Shown: positions 42 to 30,850 of the stretch, piece after piece
How the letters are laid out: every line of letters begins with the position of its first letter
How positions within the stretch are numbered: the first letter of the stretch is position 1
From: Thermobispora bispora DSM 43833
GTDB lineage: Bacteria; Actinomycetota; Actinomycetes; Streptosporangiales; Streptosporangiaceae
Direction: 5' to 3'
NCBI RefSeq assembly: GCF_000092645.1
Contig: NC_014165.1
Location: 186,001 to 250,000 of the forward strand
DNA length: 64,000 nucleotides
The notes under the pieces: generated by a model
What the model was told of the DNA's origin: nothing
Databases searched by the model: none
The model's input: the letters and a program-made list of their open reading frames with translations, nothing else
Program-made: the position numbers and the translations under genes

Positions 42-2126
42 TCAGATGAGCACGTGGCGCTCGGGGTTGCCGGCGAAGCAGAACTGGGCGTTCCGGGTGA
101 GCTTGTGGTCGGCGGCCTGCCAGGTGTGCGCCTTGGCGTCGGCGCCCCGGATGTAGATGAAGTTGAACCGGTCGGCGGAGTAGATCCGGATGCCCTCTTC
201 CTTGCACCGCCGGACGAGCCGGGTGTCCTCGCCGGCGTTGACCGGCTCGAACGGCATCGCCCGCAGCAGGTCGGCCTTGGCCAGGATCGTGGCGCCCTGG
301 ATGAGGTGGGCGTACCGGTGCTCCAGGCCGGGCAGCCGGAGCACGGTGATGTCCTGGTCGGGGAAGTAGGTGTAGTGCGCGCCCTTGCCGACCATCTCGG
401 CGTCGGTGTAGTCGAACGCCCGGATCAGGTCGGACAGGTAGTGCTCGCCGTAGATGTTGTCGTCGTCCATCTTGGCGATCAGCTCGCCCTCGGCGTGGGC
501 GATGCCGTGGTTGAGCACCTCGCCGAGCGTCCAGTCCGGGTCGGCGGTGAGCACCTTCACCTCGGGGATGCCGGCGGCGAGGGCCTTGTCCCGGACGACC
601 GACGGGTCCTCGCTCATGTTGTGCAGGACGAGCACCAGCTCCAGGTTGCGGTGGCGCTGCCGGGCCACCTGGCTGATCGCGTGCTCGATCTGGCCGGGCC
701 GGTTGGTGGGGAGGACGACCGAGACGGACCGCGACCGGGGGCGGACCGGCCAGCCGAGGTCGCGGAGGATCTGGTCCACCCGGTGGGAGAAGGTGTGCTT
801 GCTGAGCACCTCGCGCATGGCGAGGTGGCCCTGCCGGGCGCGCAGCTCCGGGCTGTTGAGGAAGTAGAGCGCGAGGTTGTAGGCCTCCTCCTGGGTGTGC
901 GCCACCGGGATGAGATCGCCGAAGGTCTCCTCGATCGCCCGGGACCAGCCGGAGAGCACGGTGGTGGAGCAGGCGGAGAGCTCGAAGACCCGCCGGGCGC
1001 ACATCGTCGGTGAGTCGATCACCGAGTTCACGTTGAGGAAGATCTTGTACATCTTGTACGCGGCGAGCATCTGCTCGTACGGCAGCTCGCCGACGATGTG
1101 CGGGCGGTACTCCTCCGGCCAGGCGTACTTGTCGGCGACGGTGGCGTTGCGGGCGAAGATGTGCAGGCCGAGCTCGCGCAGCGGGGCGAGCACGGTCTCC
1201 ATCTGCTCGCGCCGCTCCGGGTGCTTGTCCCGGAAGTACATGCCGGCGAAGACGATGTCGTACGGCCGGCCCAGGCGGGTCTGGATCGGGTTGTGGATGC
1301 GCGGCTGGGCGGCGAACTGGAGCACGCCGACCCGGTCGTGCCCCAGGATCTCCCGGTACTTCGGGATCATGTCGCCGTCGCAGGTGTAGACGTAGTCGAA
1401 GAGCTTGGCCGTCTCGATGAAGTGGTCGAAGTTGGGCGGGTCCTCCTTGTTCCAGAAGACCGTGGGGATGCCCTGCTCCTTGAACCAGGCGACCAGCTCG
1501 CGCAGCTCCTTCTTGGGAGCGTTGGTCCCGGTCATCTGATAGCGCCAGCGGCCCTGGTTGCCGTGCCAGGCCGACTCGCAGAACAGTAAGTCGGGCCGCT
1601 TCTCGGCGAAGATCTCCCGCCAGTCGTGGAGGCCGAACTCGATCTGGTCCCACTCGTAGCGGAAGGCGAGGCGGGAGAAGTCGTCGAGGATCACGGCGAC
1701 CCGCAGGTCGGGCCGGACCACCGGGCCGTCCGGCCACTGGAGGGTGGGGATGGTGACCTCGGGGCCCTTCGCCTCGGCGAGCTTGGCCGCCTCGGTCACC
1801 GGCAGCGGCGGCTTGGGGGCCTTGCGTACCTTGATCGCCTTGCTGAGATCGCGGGGCAGCCGGACGAACTTGCCCGGTTTGGTGGCGCCGGTGAGCGCCT
1901 GGGCGACCCGGTATGGGCGCTGGGCCTGCGTCGCCTTGAGCTTCCAGGTGGCGTACTCGGCGCGGGCCTCGGCGATGGCGAGCCGCTTCTCCAGGTCCCG
2001 GATGCGCTCCTCGTAGCGCTCGACGATCTTGCGTTCCTCGGGCAGCCAGTTCACCGGCCCGAGCCGGGTGAATCGCGGCGCGTCGGGTGTTTCGTCCGGA
2101 AGGCGAGTCTCATCCGTCTCAGCCAT
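42..2126 (-). CDS. Two-domain glycosyltransferase (CgeB/YkvP-like plus family 2)
   Basis: A predicted 694-residue cytoplasmic glycosyltransferase. An N-terminal coiled coil (about residues 30-75, rich in E, R and A) precedes a CgeB/YkvP-like glycosyltransferase region (about 140-460). A GT-A family 2 domain follows (about 467-680), starting SVSVVLPTNRPG and carrying the metal-binding run DDDN near residue 553. The ATG at 2126 is chosen because AGGGGGGAGAT lies directly upstream; the open frame continues further but without a ribosome site. It probably adds sugars to the surface glycan whose precursors come from the neighbouring wecB and wecC-like genes. Donor and acceptor cannot be read from the sequence. 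Confidence 0.85.
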   Translation of the reverse strand: MAETDETRLPDETPDAPRFTRLGPVNWLPEERKIVERYEERIRDLEKRLAIAEARAEYATWKLKATQAQRPYRVAQALTGATKPGKFVRLPRDLSKAIKVRKAPKPPLPVTEAAKLAEAKGPEVTIPTLQWPDGPVVRPDLRVAVILDDFSRLAFRYEWDQIEFGLHDWREIFAEKRPDLLFCESAWHGNQGRWRYQMTGTNAPKKELRELVAWFKEQGIPTVFWNKEDPPNFDHFIETAKLFDYVYTCDGDMIPKYREILGHDRVGVLQFAAQPRIHNPIQTRLGRPYDIVFAGMYFRDKHPERREQMETVLAPLRELGLHIFARNATVADKYAWPEEYRPHIVGELPYEQMLAAYKMYKIFLNVNSVIDSPTMCARRVFELSACSTTVLSGWSRAIEETFGDLIPVAHTQEEAYNLALYFLNSPELRARQGHLAMREVLSKHTFSHRVDQILRDLGWPVRPRSRSVSVVLPTNRPGQIEHAISQVARQRHRNLELVLVLHNMSEDPSVVRDKALAAGIPEVKVLTADPDWTLGEVLNHGIAHAEGELIAKMDDDNIYGEHYLSDLIRAFDYTDAEMVGKGAHYTYFPDQDITVLRLPGLEHRYAHLIQGATILAKADLLRAMPFEPVNAGEDTRLVRRCKEEGIRIYSADRFNFIYIRGADAKAHTWQAADHKLTRNAQFCFAGNPERHVLI

Positions 2127-2552
2127 ATCTCCCCCCTCGCGGAACGCCATCGTACGGTGTGCCACGCCCGACTCGCGTAGGTATCGGGCCAAGAGGCATG
2201 GCTCGCGAGGGTATCCGGCGAATCGTCCGCCCTGGTGGCCGCCGGGAAGCCGTCCGGCGTCCGGAGCCGTGGCGATGACCCGGCGATGACCGTGCACCCG
2301 GACCCGGTGGGGGAACCGGCGCGTCCGGGATGGCGATGAGAGTCCGGGAGCCCATCATCCGCCAGGCCAGGTGTGGCCAGGGTTCTCGCCGTGGCCGGGA
2401 TCGCGGTGAGCACCGCCCGGCACGCTCGGCCGGGGGATGACCCGGCCGACATGTTCGCCCGTGACGGCGCACCGCCCGGCACGCGGCGGCCGGGGTCGGC
2501 CCCACTGCGACGCCGCCGGGCGGGATCAGCCGACCGTGCCGCCGGGGTCGGT
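2127..2552. other. Intergenic stretch between wecB and the two-domain glycosyltransferase
   Basis: About 425 bases without a convincing gene. It must hold the promoter of the downstream minus-strand glycosyltransferase if that gene is not co-transcribed with wecB. Next to the wecB stop there is a hairpin (separate entry). I see no other structure. Confidence 0.5.
2530..2551 (-). terminator. Possible terminator hairpin after wecB
   Basis: CCGACC (2530-2535) and GGTCGG (2546-2551) form a six-base-pair stem directly beyond the wecB stop codon. There is no T-run, as is common in actinobacteria, so this is tentative. Confidence 0.35.
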
Positions 2553-3680
2553 TCAGCCCACCGTGCCGCGGCCGGCCGGCGAGAGGTTGTCGCCGCGCAG
2601 CCAGGCGGCGATCACCCGGGCGATCCGCGGGCCGGCCTTGCCGTCCCACAGCGGCGGGAGCTCCCCGGCCGGGGTGGCCGCGCCGTCGGCGAGGGCCTTG
2701 GCCGCGGCGGCCGGGAGCGAGGCCGGGGTGACGAGCCGGTTGGTCCCGTGGGTCACGGTGATCGGCCGCTCCGTGTTCGGCCGGACGGTGAGGCACGGGA
2801 TGCCGAGCATGGTGGTCTCCTCCTGCACCCCGCCGGAGTCGGTCACCACGAGCGCGGCCCCGCGCACCAGGGAGAGGAAGTCCACGTACCCGAGCGGCTC
2901 GATGATCTTGAGGTTCTCCCGGTCCACCAGCCCGGCCTCGGCGAGCCGCGTACGGCCCCGCGGGTGGAGCGGCACGATCACCCGGACGTGCTCGGCCACG
3001 CCGAGGACCGCCGACACCAGCTCACGGGCGGCCTCGGGGTCGTCCACGTTGGCCGGCCGGTGCAGGGTGGCGACGGCGTAGCGGCCGTCCACGCCGAGCC
3101 GCCGCTTGATCGGCTCCGGGTCGAGCTTGGGCAGCGCGGCGAAGAGGCTGTCGATCATGGGGTTGCCGACGAAGTGGACCTTGGCCGGGTCCACCCCCTC
3201 GTTCGCCAGGTGGGAGAGCGCATCGGGCGAGGTGCAGAAGAGCAGATCCGCGAGGGCGTCGGTGACGACGCGGTTGACCTCCTCCGGCATCTCGCGGTCG
3301 AACGAGCGCAGCCCCGCCTCCACGTGCGCGAACGGGATGTGGAGTTTGGCGCAGACGAGGGCCGCGGCGAGCGTGGAGTTGACGTCGCCGTAGACGACCA
3401 CGAGCGCGGGGGCGTGCTCCTGCAGCACGTCCTCCAGCCCCACCAGGAGCGCGGCCGTCTGGCGCGCGTGGGTGCCGGACCCGACCCCCAGGTTCGCGAT
3501 CGGCTCGGGAAGGTTGAGGTCGGCGAAGAACACGTCCGACATGAGCGCGTCGTAGTGCTGGCCCGTGTGCACGATGGCCTGCCGCACCCCCAGCTCGGCC
3601 AGCGCGTGGACCACGGGGGCCGCCTTGACGAAGTTGGGCCGTGCGCCCAGCACGTGCAGGACGAGGGGGTTGTCCCTCAT
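2553..3680 (-). CDS. wecB: UDP-N-acetylglucosamine 2-epimerase (non-hydrolysing)
   Basis: A 375-residue enzyme that interconverts UDP-GlcNAc and UDP-ManNAc. Family motifs are present in order: GARPNFVKAAPV at the N-terminus, HTGQHYD, VYGDVNST, HVEAGLRSFDREMPEEVNR and the C-terminal DSGGVQEET that holds the nucleotide. The ATG start at 3680 has GGCGAGG four bases upstream. It is divergent from the glycosyltransferase at 3737, with 56 bases between them. The nearby nucleotide-sugar dehydrogenase at 5578 suggests the product is oxidised to UDP-ManNAcA for a surface polysaccharide (inference). Confidence 0.95.
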   Translation of the reverse strand: MRDNPLVLHVLGARPNFVKAAPVVHALAELGVRQAIVHTGQHYDALMSDVFFADLNLPEPIANLGVGSGTHARQTAALLVGLEDVLQEHAPALVVVYGDVNSTLAAALVCAKLHIPFAHVEAGLRSFDREMPEEVNRVVTDALADLLFCTSPDALSHLANEGVDPAKVHFVGNPMIDSLFAALPKLDPEPIKRRLGVDGRYAVATLHRPANVDDPEAARELVSAVLGVAEHVRVIVPLHPRGRTRLAEAGLVDRENLKIIEPLGYVDFLSLVRGAALVVTDSGGVQEETTMLGIPCLTVRPNTERPITVTHGTNRLVTPASLPAAAAKALADGAATPAGELPPLWDGKAGPRIARVIAAWLRGDNLSPAGRGTVG

Positions 3681-3724
3681 TTACCTCGCCTTTCCTCCGG
3701 ACCTGGGGCAAACGCTGCCTATGG

Positions 3725-3736
3725 TACGGTCACGCC
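3725..3736 (+). promoter_or_regulatory. Leaderless-type promoter of glycosyltransferase
   Basis: TACGGT (3725-3730) lies six bases before the GTG at 3737, and no Shine-Dalgarno sequence is present. This supports GTG 3737 as the start, on a transcript beginning at or next to it. Confidence 0.5.
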
Positions 3737-5467
3737 GTGGAATCCGAGGCCAACAACCCCGCTCCGGCGGTGTCCACGTCCTCAGGCGATCCCATGCCGA
3801 CCGGTTCGCGCAGCACGTCCACATCGAAGATCGACGCCAAGAAGGCACGCGCCGACCTGGGCAGGTTCCTCCGTGGCTTCGTGAAGAACCCGGTCGTGGT
3901 CTCCCGGATCTTCGTGAGCAAGGTGAGATCCGACCCGATGCGGGTGGCCCAGGCGGCGGCGGAGGCCATGCCCGCGCCGCTGCGCCCGCTGGTGGGGCGC
4001 GTGGCCTGGCCGGTGGCCCGGTACGTGAAGGTCACCACGCGCAAGGTCGTCCGCAGGATGGCCGACGGCCCCCTGGAGAAGGCGAAGGACCTCTTCGACC
4101 AGGGCCGGATGTCAGAGGCGATCAAGGTGCTGCGGCCGCACCAGCGGTGGCCGTTCATCCGCCGCCGGATCGCCTACTACGAGGGTGAGATGGCCGCCCT
4201 CGGGCCGAACCCCATCCCGCCGCAGCCCAAGGTGACCGTGGCCGACCGGGTTCCCGGGCGGGTGCTCCACCTGGTCACGAACGCGCTGCCGTACACGCAG
4301 GCGGGGTACACGGTCCGCACCCACCGCATCGTCACCGCGCAGCGGGCGGCCGGGCTCGACCCCCACGTGGTGACGAGCTGGGGCTGGCCGATGCTCCAGG
4401 GCCACACCGACGCCGCGCCGTACGAGGATATCGACGGCATCCCGTACCACCGGCTGCTGCCGAAGGGTGAGGTGCCGTCCGAGAGCCGCGGCCGGATGAT
4501 CCTCGGGGCCGCCGAGGTGACCGAGCTGGTGAAGACCCTCCGGCCCCAGGTGCTCCACGCGGCGACCGACCACCGCAACGGCTCCGTGGCGCTCGCCGTG
4601 CGGGAGCGGACGAACACCCCGTTCGTCTACGAGGTGCGCGGGTTCCTCGAGGAGACCTGGGTCTCCCGCGACCCGCGACGGGTCGGCAGCGAGCGCCACC
4701 GCATGCAGCGCGAGCGCGAGGCGCAGATCATGCGGGAGGCCGACGCCGTGGTCACGCTCGCCGAGACCATGGCGGCGGAGATCGTCGAGCGGGGCGTGCC
4801 CCGGGAGCGCATCTACCTCGCGCCCAACGCGGTGGACGACTCCCTGCTCACCGCCGAGTTCGACGGCGCCGCGCTCCGCCGGCGGTACGGCATCGGCGAC
4901 GACGAGATCGTGGTCGGCTCGGTGTCGAGCATCGTCGCCTACGAGGGCTTCGCCACCCTGCTCGACGCGGCGGCGCTGCTCCGGGAGGCCGGAACCCCGG
5001 TGCGGGTGCTCCTCGTCGGCGACGGCGCCGAGCGGCCCGCGCTGCTCGAGCAGGTCGAGCGGCTCGGCCTGAAGGACCTCGCGATCCTCCCCGGGCGGGT
5101 CGCGCCCGACGAGGCGCTCCAGGCGCAGGCGGCGCTCGACATCTTCGTCTGCCCGCGCGAGGACCTGCGGGTCTGCCGGCTGGTCACCCCGCTGAAGCCG
5201 GTGGAGGCGATGGCGCTCGGCAAGCCGGTGGTGCTCAGCGACCTCCCCGCGCTCGCCGAGCTGGTGGGCTCGGGCGAGGCGGGCGTGCTCGTCCCGCCGG
5301 GCGACGCCTCGGCGCTCGCGCGGGCGATCGCCGAGCTCCGCGACGACCCGGCGCGCCGCCGCGAGATGGGCGAGGCCGGGAAGGCCGAGGTCGCGGCGAA
5401 GCGCACGTGGAGCAGCCTGGCGAAGACTTACCAGAACATCTACCGAACAGTTACGGACGGGAGATAA
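3737..5467 (+). CDS. Glycosyltransferase family 4 (GT-B fold)
   Basis: A 576-residue protein. A variable N-terminal region of about 170 residues precedes the GT-B domains. The acceptor half starts around VLHLVTNALPYTQAGYTVRT. The donor half contains GSVSSIVAYEGFATLLDAAALL, LLVGDGAERPAL and the final VEAMALGKPVVLSDLPALAELV, with PVEAMALGKPV in the usual EX7E region. The GTG at 3737 is chosen because TACGGT sits six bases upstream (leaderless pattern); an ATG at 3794 is an alternative. It lies in the surface-glycan cluster and is probably cytoplasmic or peripheral at the membrane. Sugar specificity is unknown. Confidence 0.88.
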   Translation: MESEANNPAPAVSTSSGDPMPTGSRSTSTSKIDAKKARADLGRFLRGFVKNPVVVSRIFVSKVRSDPMRVAQAAAEAMPAPLRPLVGRVAWPVARYVKVTTRKVVRRMADGPLEKAKDLFDQGRMSEAIKVLRPHQRWPFIRRRIAYYEGEMAALGPNPIPPQPKVTVADRVPGRVLHLVTNALPYTQAGYTVRTHRIVTAQRAAGLDPHVVTSWGWPMLQGHTDAAPYEDIDGIPYHRLLPKGEVPSESRGRMILGAAEVTELVKTLRPQVLHAATDHRNGSVALAVRERTNTPFVYEVRGFLEETWVSRDPRRVGSERHRMQREREAQIMREADAVVTLAETMAAEIVERGVPRERIYLAPNAVDDSLLTAEFDGAALRRRYGIGDDEIVVGSVSSIVAYEGFATLLDAAALLREAGTPVRVLLVGDGAERPALLEQVERLGLKDLAILPGRVAPDEALQAQAALDIFVCPREDLRVCRLVTPLKPVEAMALGKPVVLSDLPALAELVGSGEAGVLVPPGDASALARAIAELRDDPARRREMGEAGKAEVAAKRTWSSLAKTYQNIYRTVTDGR

Positions 5468-27307: not shown

Positions 27308-27739
27308 GTGGGACGCCACAGGTCTGATCGAGCGGGCGCGGCCAAGCCGCTGACCATCGGCGCGGCCGTCGTGCTGGTGCTCGCCGTGCTCGTGGTCGCG
27401 GTCCGGACGCTGATGCCGGACGGCGGCTCCGACGCGTCCGCGGCGGCGACGCCGGCGGCCGAGGCGGCCGCGTCCGAGAACCCCGCCGAACGTGTACCCA
27501 CCGTGCGGCTCGTGTGCCAGGCGGAGCGCTGCCCGGTCTTCGTCCGGATCCCCGGCGGTGACGTGCTCATCGACCGGGACCTGAGCAAGGGCGAGGAGGC
27601 CTCCTACTACGAACCCGAGCTCGAGATCGTGCTCGACGACGCCGGCTCGGTACGGGTGTTCGAGAACGGGACCCCGCGCGAGGGCGGCCAGCCGGGCGAG
27701 CGCGAGGCGTTCAAGGTCAAGCGAGACCCAGATCGGTGA
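27308..27739 (+). CDS. Single-pass membrane protein with RodZ-C-like outer domain
   Basis: A 143-residue protein with a short basic N-terminus, one membrane helix (about residues 16-36, IGAAVVLVLAVLVVAV), an Ala-rich linker and an outer domain with two cysteines (CQAERC). The pattern VFVRIPGGDVLIDRDLSKGEEASYYEPELEIVLDDAGSVRVFENG resembles the DUF4115 fold found at the C-terminus of RodZ. The GTG at 27308 follows TAATCT (27294-27299) by eight bases. It lies 55 bases after dedA. Its end overlaps convergent pyrE by 23 bases. No specific function is assigned. Confidence 0.65.
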   Translation: MGRHRSDRAGAAKPLTIGAAVVLVLAVLVVAVRTLMPDGGSDASAAATPAAEAAASENPAERVPTVRLVCQAERCPVFVRIPGGDVLIDRDLSKGEEASYYEPELEIVLDDAGSVRVFENGTPREGGQPGEREAFKVKRDPDR

Positions 27740-28265: not shown

Positions 28266-28351
28266 GAGCCTGGTGCCCCCGGCTCCGCTACGTAAAGCCA
28301 GGTCAGCGGTTTAGCCATGAGGCCGGTTGCGGAATGTAGCTTGCGGCAACG

Positions 28352-30850
28352 GTGCGTAATCGCGAGGTCGCAATGCGGAGAAAGAACCGGCAATCCGACG
28401 AGGAGCTGCTCGACGCGGTCCGGAGGGGCGACACCTCCGCCTACGGCATGCTCTACCAGCGCCACGTCCTGCCCGCCCGGGCCCTCGCCCGGCGGCTGGT
28501 GCGGGGCGATGAAGAGGTGGAGGACGTCCTCGTCGAGACCTTCGCCGGGGTCCTGGAGATCATCCGACGCGGGGGCGGCCCCGGCTCCGCTTTCCGGCCC
28601 TTCCTGCTGGCGTCGCTCCGCCGCTACGCCGCCGCCGGTGAGGTCGATCTCACGGACCCGGACGCCTGCTACGTGGACCCGGAGCTGGCCGGGCTCGAAC
28701 AGGCCCCGCTCGCCCGGGCGTACCGGTCGCTGCCCGAGCGCTGGCGGGCCGTGCTCTGGCACATCGAGGTGGAGGGCGCCACGCCCGCGGAGACGGCCCC
28801 GCTGCTCGGCATGTCCGCCCGGCGCACCGCGCGGTTCGCCCGCGAGGCCCGCGGCGCCCTCCGGGAGGCGTACCTCGCGCTCCATGAGAGCGACGCGCAC
28901 GACGAGGCGTGCCGCCCGGTGCTCGCCCTGCTCCTGCGGCACGTCGAAGGGCTGCTGCCCAAGCGCGAGGCCCGCACGGTGGACCAGCACATCGCCGGGT
29001 GCATCGAGTGCCGGTCGGTCTTCCTCGAGCTCACCGACGTGACCCAAGGGCTCCGGATGATCGTCGGCCCGCTCTACGCCGGGCCGGCGGCGGAGGACTA
29101 CCTCAGCGATCTCCGCAGGGTGCGGCAGGAGGCGAGGCGCGGGCCGGTGCGCGGGGTGCTCCTCCCCTTAGCGCGCCTGCTCCCCGGGTTGTGGCGGCGG
29201 CTGCCCCCGGCCCAGCGGGCGGCCGCCGCCGGTGCCGCGCTGCTGCTCTCCGCGGTCACCGTCATCCTCTCCGCCGAGCCGGTCGGCGAACGGCGGGCGG
29301 TCGGCGGCCTCGCCCTCCCCACCCTGCCGTCCCCGGACTCCGCGGTGACCGGGCAGGCCGGTGACGGGCCCGGCCGGCCGGAGCGGGGCGAGCGCGCGCG
29401 GCCGCGCGACGGGCATCGGGCCGGTGGCCCCGGCGGTGCCCCGGACGGGCTTCCGGCGGGCGAGGCGGGCTCCGGGCCCCGGCGCGGCACGGGCGCGCCC
29501 GCGGGCTCACGGGCATCGGACGCTTCCGCCCGGCCGCAGCCCGGCGCCGGCGGCCTGCCGGTGCGGCGGCCGCTCGCCGCGCGGGATCCCGGCCCGGCGC
29601 CGTCCGCCGCGGGGGTTCCCGATCCGGCGCCGGCCGGCGCGGATCACCCGGTCCGCCTGACGCGGCGGCCCGACCTCGGCATCACCGTCCAGCCGCTCGG
29701 CGCGCTCGTGCGCGGCCGATCCGGCATCGTCGCGCTCGGCGCCCGCAACACCGGCACGGCCCGCACCGAGCGGGTGGTGGCGACCGTGCTGCTCCCGCCC
29801 GGGGTCCGGTTCCGCGGCCTGGTGGCCCCGGAGCGTCCGGGGGCGGGCCGGCCCTGGTCCTGCCGGGACGCGGCACGGGCCGTGCGGTGCACCCGCCCCG
29901 GGCTCGCCGCCGGGGCATCGGCCACCGCCTTTCTGCGGGTGAAGGTGGCCGAGGGCGCGCCCCTGGGCCGCCCGGTGCGGGCATGGGCGCGCTCGGGGGA
30001 GCGGATCGCGTTCGCGACCTCCTCGTCCGGGGTGCGCGCCATGGGGGTCCCGGCCCGCTTCGCCGCGGAGGGCCGGCTCCTCACCCAGGTGATCGGCGGC
30101 GTCCTGTTCGGCCCGCCCGGGGACGCGCCCACCGGCGTCCCGGCGACCGTTCCCGGCGGCCCGGAGGCCAACGCCGAGAGCGGCGCCCGGCTCACCCTCC
30201 CGGCCCGCGGCCGGGTGCTCTGGGCCGGCCTCTACTGGTCCGCCGCCGGCCACGGCCGGCTGCAGGCCGGTGAGGTCCTGGTGCGCGCGCCGGGCGCCCG
30301 GGGCCCGGTGACCGTGCGCCCGGCGTCGGTGATCCGCCGTGACCTGCCCGGACTGTCCGGCTACCAGGCGTTCGCCGAGGTCACCGGCCTGGTCCGGGCG
30401 CACGGGAGCGGCCAGTGGGCGGTGGCCGGCGCCTCCGCCGCCCTCCGGCCGGGCGGCCCCGGCGTGCTGCGGTGGGCGCGGTGGACCCTCGTGGTGGTCG
30501 CGGCCGATCCGCGCCAGCCGTTCGGCCGGGTGATGGTGCTCGACACCGCCGAGGTCGTCGACGACCGGGGACGGCTGAACGTCCCGCTCACCGGGCTCGC
30601 GCCCGCCGCGTCCCCGGTGCGGATCGACCTCGCCGTGTGGACCGGCGAGCGGGACGGCTCGGCCGCGCTGCGGGACCGGTCACGGCGGGGTGCATCGGCC
30701 CGGGGGGACGGCCAGGGTTCTGACGTCTCGCTCGCCACCGCCCGGCCGCTGCGCGGGCTGCTCGGGCAGCGGCCGGTGCTCACCCTGACCGGTGTGCGTG
30801 ACACGCTGCTGTTCGGGGTGGCCGCGGTCAGCGCGCACCACTGGTCATGA
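28352..30850 (+). CDS. Membrane-tethered ECF sigma factor with zinc anti-sigma-like and outer domains
   Basis: An 832-residue multidomain protein. Residues 15-85 resemble sigma region 2 (DEELLDAVRRGDTSAYGMLYQRH). Residues 118-178 resemble region 4 (LPERWRAVLWHIEVEGATPAETAPLLGMSARRTARFAREA). Next comes a zinc anti-sigma-like motif with C187 and H213-x3-C217-x2-C220. One membrane helix follows at about 290-310. A Pro/Gly-rich linker leads to a large outer part with a DUF11-like beta domain (about 445-560) and a further domain to the end. GTG 28352 has TAGCTT nine bases upstream; ATG 28373 with GAGG is an alternative start. The fusion implies a sigma factor held at the membrane, activated by an outside signal or by cleavage (inference). 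Confidence 0.8.
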   Translation: MRNREVAMRRKNRQSDEELLDAVRRGDTSAYGMLYQRHVLPARALARRLVRGDEEVEDVLVETFAGVLEIIRRGGGPGSAFRPFLLASLRRYAAAGEVDLTDPDACYVDPELAGLEQAPLARAYRSLPERWRAVLWHIEVEGATPAETAPLLGMSARRTARFAREARGALREAYLALHESDAHDEACRPVLALLLRHVEGLLPKREARTVDQHIAGCIECRSVFLELTDVTQGLRMIVGPLYAGPAAEDYLSDLRRVRQEARRGPVRGVLLPLARLLPGLWRRLPPAQRAAAAGAALLLSAVTVILSAEPVGERRAVGGLALPTLPSPDSAVTGQAGDGPGRPERGERARPRDGHRAGGPGGAPDGLPAGEAGSGPRRGTGAPAGSRASDASARPQPGAGGLPVRRPLAARDPGPAPSAAGVPDPAPAGADHPVRLTRRPDLGITVQPLGALVRGRSGIVALGARNTGTARTERVVATVLLPPGVRFRGLVAPERPGAGRPWSCRDAARAVRCTRPGLAAGASATAFLRVKVAEGAPLGRPVRAWARSGERIAFATSSSGVRAMGVPARFAAEGRLLTQVIGGVLFGPPGDAPTGVPATVPGGPEANAESGARLTLPARGRVLWAGLYWSAAGHGRLQAGEVLVRAPGARGPVTVRPASVIRRDLPGLSGYQAFAEVTGLVRAHGSGQWAVAGASAALRPGGPGVLRWARWTLVVVAADPRQPFGRVMVLDTAEVVDDRGRLNVPLTGLAPAASPVRIDLAVWTGERDGSAALRDRSRRGASARGDGQGSDVSLATARPLRGLLGQRPVLTLTGVRDTLLFGVAAVSAHHWS

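What the first reader, a model, noticed from the sequence alone, without database searches (positions are those of the whole stretch)
28352..30850. Sigma factor, zinc anti-sigma domain, membrane helix and large outer domain in one chain
Sigma regions 2 and 4, a C187/H213-C217-C220 zinc motif, one membrane helix and about 520 outer residues are joined in a single frame without interruption. A transcription factor fixed in the membrane with its own anti-sigma-like lock implies activation by an outside cue or proteolysis. ECF groups with C-terminal extensions are known in actinobacteria; the DUF11-like plus C-terminal outer part here looks adhesin-like rather than enzymatic.
Basis: partly seen in the sequence, partly recalled or inferred. 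Interest (0 to 1): 0.72.

Follow-up and report, generated by a model that had tools for sequence, protein, structure and literature searches.

The report
Membrane-anchored sigma factor with adhesin-like ectodomain
This gene makes one protein that joins a transcription-starting factor, its own inhibitor, a membrane anchor and a large outside domain, apparently so that something sensed outside the cell can switch genes on; the general design is known from Streptomyces, but this outside domain has not been described on such a protein in the papers I could search.

Summary
One intact gene, 28373-30850 (+), 825 codons, encodes an ECF sigma factor (regions 2 and 4), a zf-HC2 anti-sigma zinc domain, one membrane helix and about 520 outer residues. 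The genome (4,189,976 bp, one contig) matches the finished Thermobispora bispora R51 genome. It is not a sequencing artefact: I read the same fused frame in 20 other genomes, all four zinc ligands are invariant in 22 of 22 sequences, and the gene sits between pyrE and an NYN-domain gene across the family.

The architecture is a known kind: actinobacterial ECF48/52/53 sigma factors with a fused anti-sigma domain and membrane helix (SCO4117 type). What differs is the ectodomain: a DUF11-like beta-sandwich (adhesin-stalk fold) plus a DUF3344-like domain, where SCO4117 relatives carry NPCBM and other Streptomyces paralogues carry DUF642 or ricin-B domains.

New here: eight orthologues, including this one, lost 11 residues at the end of sigma region 2.4 (-10 recognition) and lie on a long branch, yet remain under purifying selection.

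Proteolytic release of an active sigma is likely but untested. New variant of a known kind.

The parts
28373..30850 (+). whole gene: sigma2-sigma4-ZAS-TM-linker-DUF11-like-DUF3344-like, 825 aa
   Evidence: same frame fused in 20 other genomes
28364..28368 (+). Shine-Dalgarno GAGGT, sets the start at ATG 28373
   Evidence: conserved in close orthologues, GAGGC in one of them
28292..28335 (+). conserved upstream element GTAAAG-N9-CGGTTTAGCC-N11-TGCGGAAT, a candidate promoter or regulator site
   Evidence: stays next to this gene, not pyrE, when the gap widens (L004); the only near-exact copy in the genome
28451..28627 (+). sigma region 2 (residues 27-85)
   Evidence: Pfam Sigma70_r2; E55 and F57 invariant in 22/22
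28622..28657 (+). site of the 11-residue deletion: end of region 2.4 and start of the sigma2-sigma4 linker (residues 84-95)
   Evidence: 10 residues here in 8 members, 19-23 in the other 14; 8-member clade 100/100
28697..28882 (+). sigma region 4 (residues about 109-170)
   Evidence: predicted fold matches sigL region 4 of the RslA complex, Z 9.2, rmsd 3.8, 72 aligned
28910..29014 (+). zinc anti-sigma domain zf-HC2 (residues 180-214; C180, H206, C210, C213)
   Evidence: ligands invariant 22/22; profile matches RslA at E 0.045
29219..29275 (+). single membrane helix (residues 283-301), N-terminus inside
   Evidence: hydropathy 2.09 and K/R bias 4 before / 2 after
29276..29650 (+). Pro/Ala/Gly-rich linker, fast-evolving, length varies between genomes
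   Evidence: alignment; highest dN/dS of the regions in most pairs
29651..30046 (+). DUF11-like beta-sandwich (residues 427-558)
   Evidence: weak DUF11 hits; model matches integrin alpha and the CLIPPER adhesin domain, Z about 12
30047..30847 (+). DUF3344-like domain (residues 559-825)
   Evidence: homologous over its length to L048, which passes Pfam DUF3344 (31.0 vs 27.2 bits)

Best explanation
A one-piece transmembrane signalling sigma factor. Shown here: in one chain, an ECF sigma (regions 2 and 4) is followed by a zinc anti-sigma domain, one membrane helix, a long flexible linker, a DUF11-like spacer sandwich and a DUF3344-like end domain. Inferred: the zinc domain folds back on sigma region 4 and holds the sigma silent at the membrane. 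The DUF11/DUF3344 part spans or touches the cell wall and senses a ligand or wall state. Binding or strain exposes the chain to an outer protease, then a site-2 (M50) protease cuts in the membrane. The soluble sigma-ZAS fragment must still be opened, by zinc loss, oxidation, trimming or core RNA polymerase, before it drives its genes. In the Thermobispora/Microbispora/Planotetraspora branch, an 11-residue loss at the end of region 2.4 probably changed promoter recognition.
For: Intact fused frame in 21 genomes. Same locus between pyrE and the NYN gene across the family. Zinc ligands invariant 22/22; E55 and F57 of region 2 invariant. Sigma, ZAS and outer domains each under purifying selection, linker less so. 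Profile matches solved ECF sigmas and weakly RslA; predicted region 4 best matches sigL region 4 from the sigL-RslA complex. DUF11-like part has an adhesin/integrin-type sandwich. Same plan with other outer domains in Streptomyces. A truncated SCO4117 keeping the sigma domain is partly functional (PMC5826349). Processing of fused IutY by Prc and RseP is demonstrated (PMC8999054). The genome encodes Peptidase_M50 proteins.
Against: No experiment on this protein. No ligand, outer protease or target gene identified. The genes next door are conserved housekeeping and two-component genes with no evident link. The AlphaFold models are only moderate (mean pLDDT 65.8 and 56.0) and do not show how ZAS packs on sigma. 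M50 proteases occur in all 14 control genomes, so their presence is weak support. The 11-residue loss could mean weakened, not changed, DNA recognition.
Confidence: 0.62

Rival explanations
1. Sensing without cutting: the protein stays whole. Outer binding or internal oxidation of the zinc site opens the ZAS, and RNA polymerase uses the sigma while it is tethered to the membrane.
For: HxxxCxxC-type zinc sites are redox-sensitive in several anti-sigmas (PMC8999054); the long cytoplasmic stretch between ZAS and helix in some members (TM starts at residue 319-410 in L003, L037-L040) would give reach; a fused ZAS cannot be removed by simple release.
Against: A large conserved ectodomain under purifying selection argues for an outside signal; fused IutY is activated by proteolysis (PMC8999054).
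Confidence: 0.22
2. In this branch the sigma module no longer acts as a normal sigma factor. The region 2.4 loss damaged promoter recognition, and the protein now serves mainly as a surface protein or as a sink for RNA polymerase.
For: 11-residue deletion at region 2.4 in 8 members on a long stem (0.45); sigma region 4 scores poorly for the window protein (E 0.02).
Against: dN/dS of the sigma part is 0.30-0.42 within the deletion clade, similar to one pair without the deletion (0.45) though above another (0.15); E55, F57, W124 and W129 invariant.
Confidence: 0.13
3. The fusion is an artefact: neighbouring sigma and surface-protein genes joined by a sequencing error.
For: One relative, G233 (L050), has the two halves in different frames in the linker.
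Against: Intact fusion in 20 other genomes from several families, and in a finished genome; in G233 the breaks lie in the low-complexity linker.
Confidence: 0.01

Closest known systems
ECF52 sigma factors, SCO4117 of Streptomyces coelicolor (PMC5826349; reviewed in PMC8999054)
   Same: sigma2-sigma4, zinc finger, membrane helix, Pro-rich linker and outer C-terminal domain in one chain; all four zinc ligands shared; neighbouring branch of the sigma tree
   Different: outer domain is NPCBM in SCO4117-type proteins, DUF11-like plus DUF3344-like here; located next to a TetR/atrA-type gene there, next to pyrE here
ECF48 and ECF53 sigma factors (PMC8999054)
   Same: C-terminal zinc finger and one or two membrane helices fused to an actinobacterial ECF sigma
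   Different: the review gives extensions of up to 400 residues; here about 650 from the start of the ZAS, over 1000 in some relatives. Group HMMs were not available to test assignment
Streptomyces sigma-ZAS-TM-DUF642 protein (L083)
   Same: the closest Streptomyces match to the sigma-ZAS profile (E 4e-74) and the same overall layout; branch 99/94 joins it to the present family
   Different: DUF642 outer domain, not DUF11/DUF3344; single example on a long branch
IutY (ECF243, Pseudomonas putida; PMC8999054)
   Same: sigma fused to a membrane-bound anti-sigma; shown to be activated by stepwise proteolysis
   Different: Gram-negative iron-starvation cell-surface signalling system; no DUF11/DUF3344 reported
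Stand-alone secreted DUF3344 proteins of Streptomyces (L055, L056) and large DUF11 surface proteins
   Same: homologous C-terminal outer domain
   Different: no sigma, no anti-sigma domain in the same chain

Membership tests
ECF sigma factor (sigma70 family group 4) | sigma regions 2 and 4 only, with no region 1 or 3 domains | tested here: met
   Sigma70_r2 above cut-off; region 4 by orthologue profile and fold
ECF sigma factor (sigma70 family group 4) | directs transcription with core RNA polymerase | not testable with these tools
   needs in vitro transcription; region 2 residues E55 and F57 conserved
Zinc anti-sigma domain (zf-HC2 / ZAS) | Hx3Cx2C plus an upstream Cys ligand | tested here: met
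   C180, H206, C210, C213 invariant in 22/22; zf-HC2 above cut-off in most relatives, just below in the window protein
ECF52 (SCO4117 group) | zinc finger, membrane helix and Pro-rich extension fused after sigma4 | tested here: met
ECF52 (SCO4117 group) | C-terminal carbohydrate-binding (NPCBM) module | tested here: not met
   no NPCBM hit; DUF11-like plus DUF3344-like instead (compare)
ECF52 (SCO4117 group) | groups with NPCBM-type sigma factors in phylogeny | tested here: not met
   NPCBM types form their own branch (100/99); the window lies outside it
ECF48 / ECF52 / ECF53 group assignment | score against the published ECF-group HMMs | not testable with these tools
   the HMMs and the 2021 classification paper are not held
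DUF3344 (PF11824) | Pfam match above gathering score | tested here: inconclusive
   no direct hit for the window protein; the homologue L048, aligned over the same region, passes at 31.0 bits against 27.2
DUF11 (PF01345) | Pfam match above gathering score | tested here: not met
   12.4 bits against 24.6, 15.0 in L053; the fold resembles the DUF11/integrin-type sandwich, so 'DUF11-like' only
Proteolytically released (RIP) sigma system | regulated cleavage frees the cytoplasmic sigma | not testable with these tools
   M50 proteases present but universal in the controls

The most novel reading that the evidence does not exclude
A family of one-piece sigma receptors in which a conserved sigma-ZAS-TM core is combined with interchangeable wall-facing sensors (DUF11/DUF3344, NPCBM, DUF642, ricin-B). 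In one branch the sigma has dropped the end of its -10 recognition helix and taken on altered promoter specificity.
Probability: 0.4. Interest if true: 0.6.

Novelty: new variant of a known kind. Interest (0 to 1): 0.42.

Why it matters
It extends membrane-tethered, self-inhibited sigma factors from the single characterised Streptomyces case to an actinobacterial series with swappable outer sensors. Because receptor, lock and output are one polypeptide, a test is simple: swap the ectodomain, or mutate the zinc ligands, and read a reporter in a laboratory strain. The natural region 2.4 deletion offers a direct way to ask how much of the -10 recognition helix an ECF sigma can lose.

Tried and rejected
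Sequencing-error fusion: rejected by conserved intact frames. GTG 28352 as start: replaced by ATG 28373 on SD and conservation. Upstream element as a genome-wide regulon motif: no second near-exact copy in the genome, so no regulon could be predicted, and it fits no standard ECF promoter spacing by eye. Upstream element as part of the pyrE promoter: unlikely, because it stays next to the sigma gene where the gap to pyrE is about 650 bp (L004). Direct PDB sequence match for the outer part: none credible. Structure of the DUF3344-like part: model too poor (pLDDT mostly under 50); the structural aligner covered mainly residues 1-132 of that model, so its fold was barely tested. Neighbouring genes as pathway partners: they are conserved syntenic genes, no specific link found. 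The ECF classification paper was not held. The first attempts at whole-genome search failed and were repeated successfully later.

Full report
Observation. The frame at 28352-30850 (+) is open throughout. The true start is ATG 28373: it is preceded by GAGGT at 28364-28368, and this Shine-Dalgarno/ATG context is conserved in the close orthologues, with GAGGC in one of them. The protein is 825 aa. Pfam finds sigma region 2 above its cut-off, zf-HC2 just below, and region 4 and DUF11 only weakly. Relatives score much better: zf-HC2 to E 2.5e-8 and Sigma70_r2 to 1.7e-9 within the six-member alignment. A profile of six orthologues matches M. tuberculosis SigE, E. coli sigmaE (1or7) and CnrH in the PDB, and weakly the zinc anti-sigma RslA (3hug). 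The predicted region 4 is closest to sigL region 4 from the sigL-RslA complex (Z 9.2, rmsd 3.8, 72 aligned), though Z near 9 for a small helical domain is modest evidence.

Genome and neighbours. The window lies in a 4,189,976-base single-contig genome, the size reported for Thermobispora bispora R51 (PMC3035289). The gene stands divergent from pyrE and upstream of an NYN-domain gene, a response regulator and a HAMP/GAF hybrid kinase, with fba, a VTT/DedA-type gene and purA beyond pyrE. The same order holds in Planotetraspora, Microbispora and Spongiactinospora and largely in Microtetraspora, and in most further family genomes. Flanking core-metabolism proteins (purA, fba, pyrE) are 80-90% identical where the sigma protein is about 45-60%, so it evolves fast.

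Not an artefact. Six related loci came from named genomes, five holding the whole gene. In a class-wide sample the outer-domain profile matched 28 of 41 sampled genomes of the same family and scattered members of other families. Where the locus held the whole gene, the sigma-ZAS part was almost always in the same frame. I read 22 sequences: 21 fused frames, counting the window, and one relative (G233, L050) in which the two halves sit in different frames within the linker. The authors of PMC5826349 saw a similar break in S. clavuligerus and suspected sequence error.

Anatomy. The zinc ligands C180, H206, C210 and C213 are invariant in 22/22 and in six Streptomyces relatives; E55, F57, W124 and W129 are invariant in 22/22. 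A single hydrophobic helix at 283-301 has four K/R before and two after, so the N-terminus is inside; the outer part is 523 residues. The linker evolves fastest. In five pairs dN/dS is 0.15-0.45 for sigma, 0-0.30 for ZAS, 0.40-0.65 for the linker, 0.25-0.60 for the DUF11-like part and 0.28-0.58 for the DUF3344-like part. These are Nei-Gojobori estimates on short, GC-rich stretches and should be read as 'constrained', not as precise numbers.

Outer domains. Residues 427-558 are predicted as a beta-sandwich matching integrin alpha domains and the CLIPPER domain of a fibrillar adhesin (Z about 12, rmsd 3-4). PMC9210967 found a DUF11 cluster to resemble the stalk-like part of integrin alpha-X, so 'DUF11-like' is fair although Pfam's cut-off is not met. 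The C-terminal 270 residues align over their whole length with L048, which passes Pfam DUF3344, and with stand-alone secreted DUF3344 proteins in Streptomyces. DUF3344 function is unknown; PMC9210967 lists it as ambiguous with a P-proprotein-domain match. No enzyme signature was found. So 'adhesin-like rather than enzymatic' is supported for the first domain and open for the second.

Place among known systems. Streptomyces genomes searched with the sigma-ZAS profile gave several fused sigma-TM proteins. Pfam shows NPCBM outer domains (SCO4117 type; one beside a TetR regulator and an NDH2-like gene, another beside a TetR regulator), DUF642, and ricin-B lectin domains; in some ricin-B types the sigma and zinc parts are too diverged for Pfam. 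In a maximum-likelihood tree of the sigma-ZAS part, NPCBM types form one branch (100/99) and the DUF3344 types one group with moderate support (79/62), with DUF642 next to them. The outer domain thus follows sigma lineage, consistent with a few domain replacements. SCO4117 is the characterised ECF52 member; the review groups ECF48, 52 and 53 as probably activated by proteolysis (PMC8999054). No paper in the searched library describes DUF3344 on a sigma factor; the ECF reclassification paper was not held, so prior mention there cannot be excluded.

Region 2.4. Eight orthologues (window, L001, L002, L003, L037-L040) have 10 residues between the equivalents of R84 and D95 where the other fourteen have 19-23. 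The missing residues align with the C-terminal half of the region 2.4 helix and following linker of E. coli sigmaE. The clade is supported 100/100 on a stem of 0.45. It is still constrained (dN/dS 0.30-0.42), so loss of function is less likely than changed recognition. This is inference.

Upstream element. GTAAAG-N9-CGGTTTAGCC-N11-TGCGGAAT lies 81-38 bases before the ATG and is conserved in nearly all close orthologues, but not in the three more distant g3/g13-type genomes tested. It stays beside this gene when the gap to pyrE widens (L004). It has no second near-exact copy in the genome. It may be a promoter or regulator site; it did not reveal a regulon.

Mechanism. The best-supported model is a one-piece receptor: outer cue, cleavage, release of a sigma-ZAS fragment, then opening of the ZAS. 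Steps shown by sequence: domain order, topology, conservation. Inferred: inhibition, sensing, cleavage. Because ZAS lies between sigma4 and the membrane helix, cutting in the membrane alone leaves the lock attached, so a further step is required; this separates the system from canonical two-gene sigma/anti-sigma pairs.

Verdict. The finding is real and correctly read. It is a new variant of a known kind, with two points of added value: the DUF11/DUF3344 sensor and the region 2.4 deletion.

Noticed in passing
L050 (G233), linker region: Sigma-ZAS-TM part and outer part lie in different frames; the break is in the low-complexity linker. It could be sequence error, a pseudogene or a true split.
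   Followed up: partly
L055, L056: Streptomyces genomes carry stand-alone secreted-looking DUF3344 proteins of about 400 aa.
   Followed up: partly
L087 (G253 C27), 1983-4972: Two adjacent fused sigma genes on one strand: one with a ricin-B outer domain, the next a 462-residue frame with no outer domain seen.
   Followed up: no
L091, L092, L093, L095, L096, L097: Streptomyces sigma-like proteins with ricin-B outer domains whose sigma and zinc parts are too diverged for Pfam; possibly a separate fast-evolving family.
   Followed up: no
28292-28335: Strongly conserved upstream element of unknown role in Streptosporangiaceae orthologues.
   Followed up: partly
27308-27739: Small protein with an N-terminal hydrophobic helix and no Pfam match, conserved beside pyrE in most family genomes.
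   Followed up: no
L003, L037, L038: Microbispora-type members have about 90-130 extra residues between the ZAS and the membrane helix and repetitive charged linkers outside.
   Followed up: no
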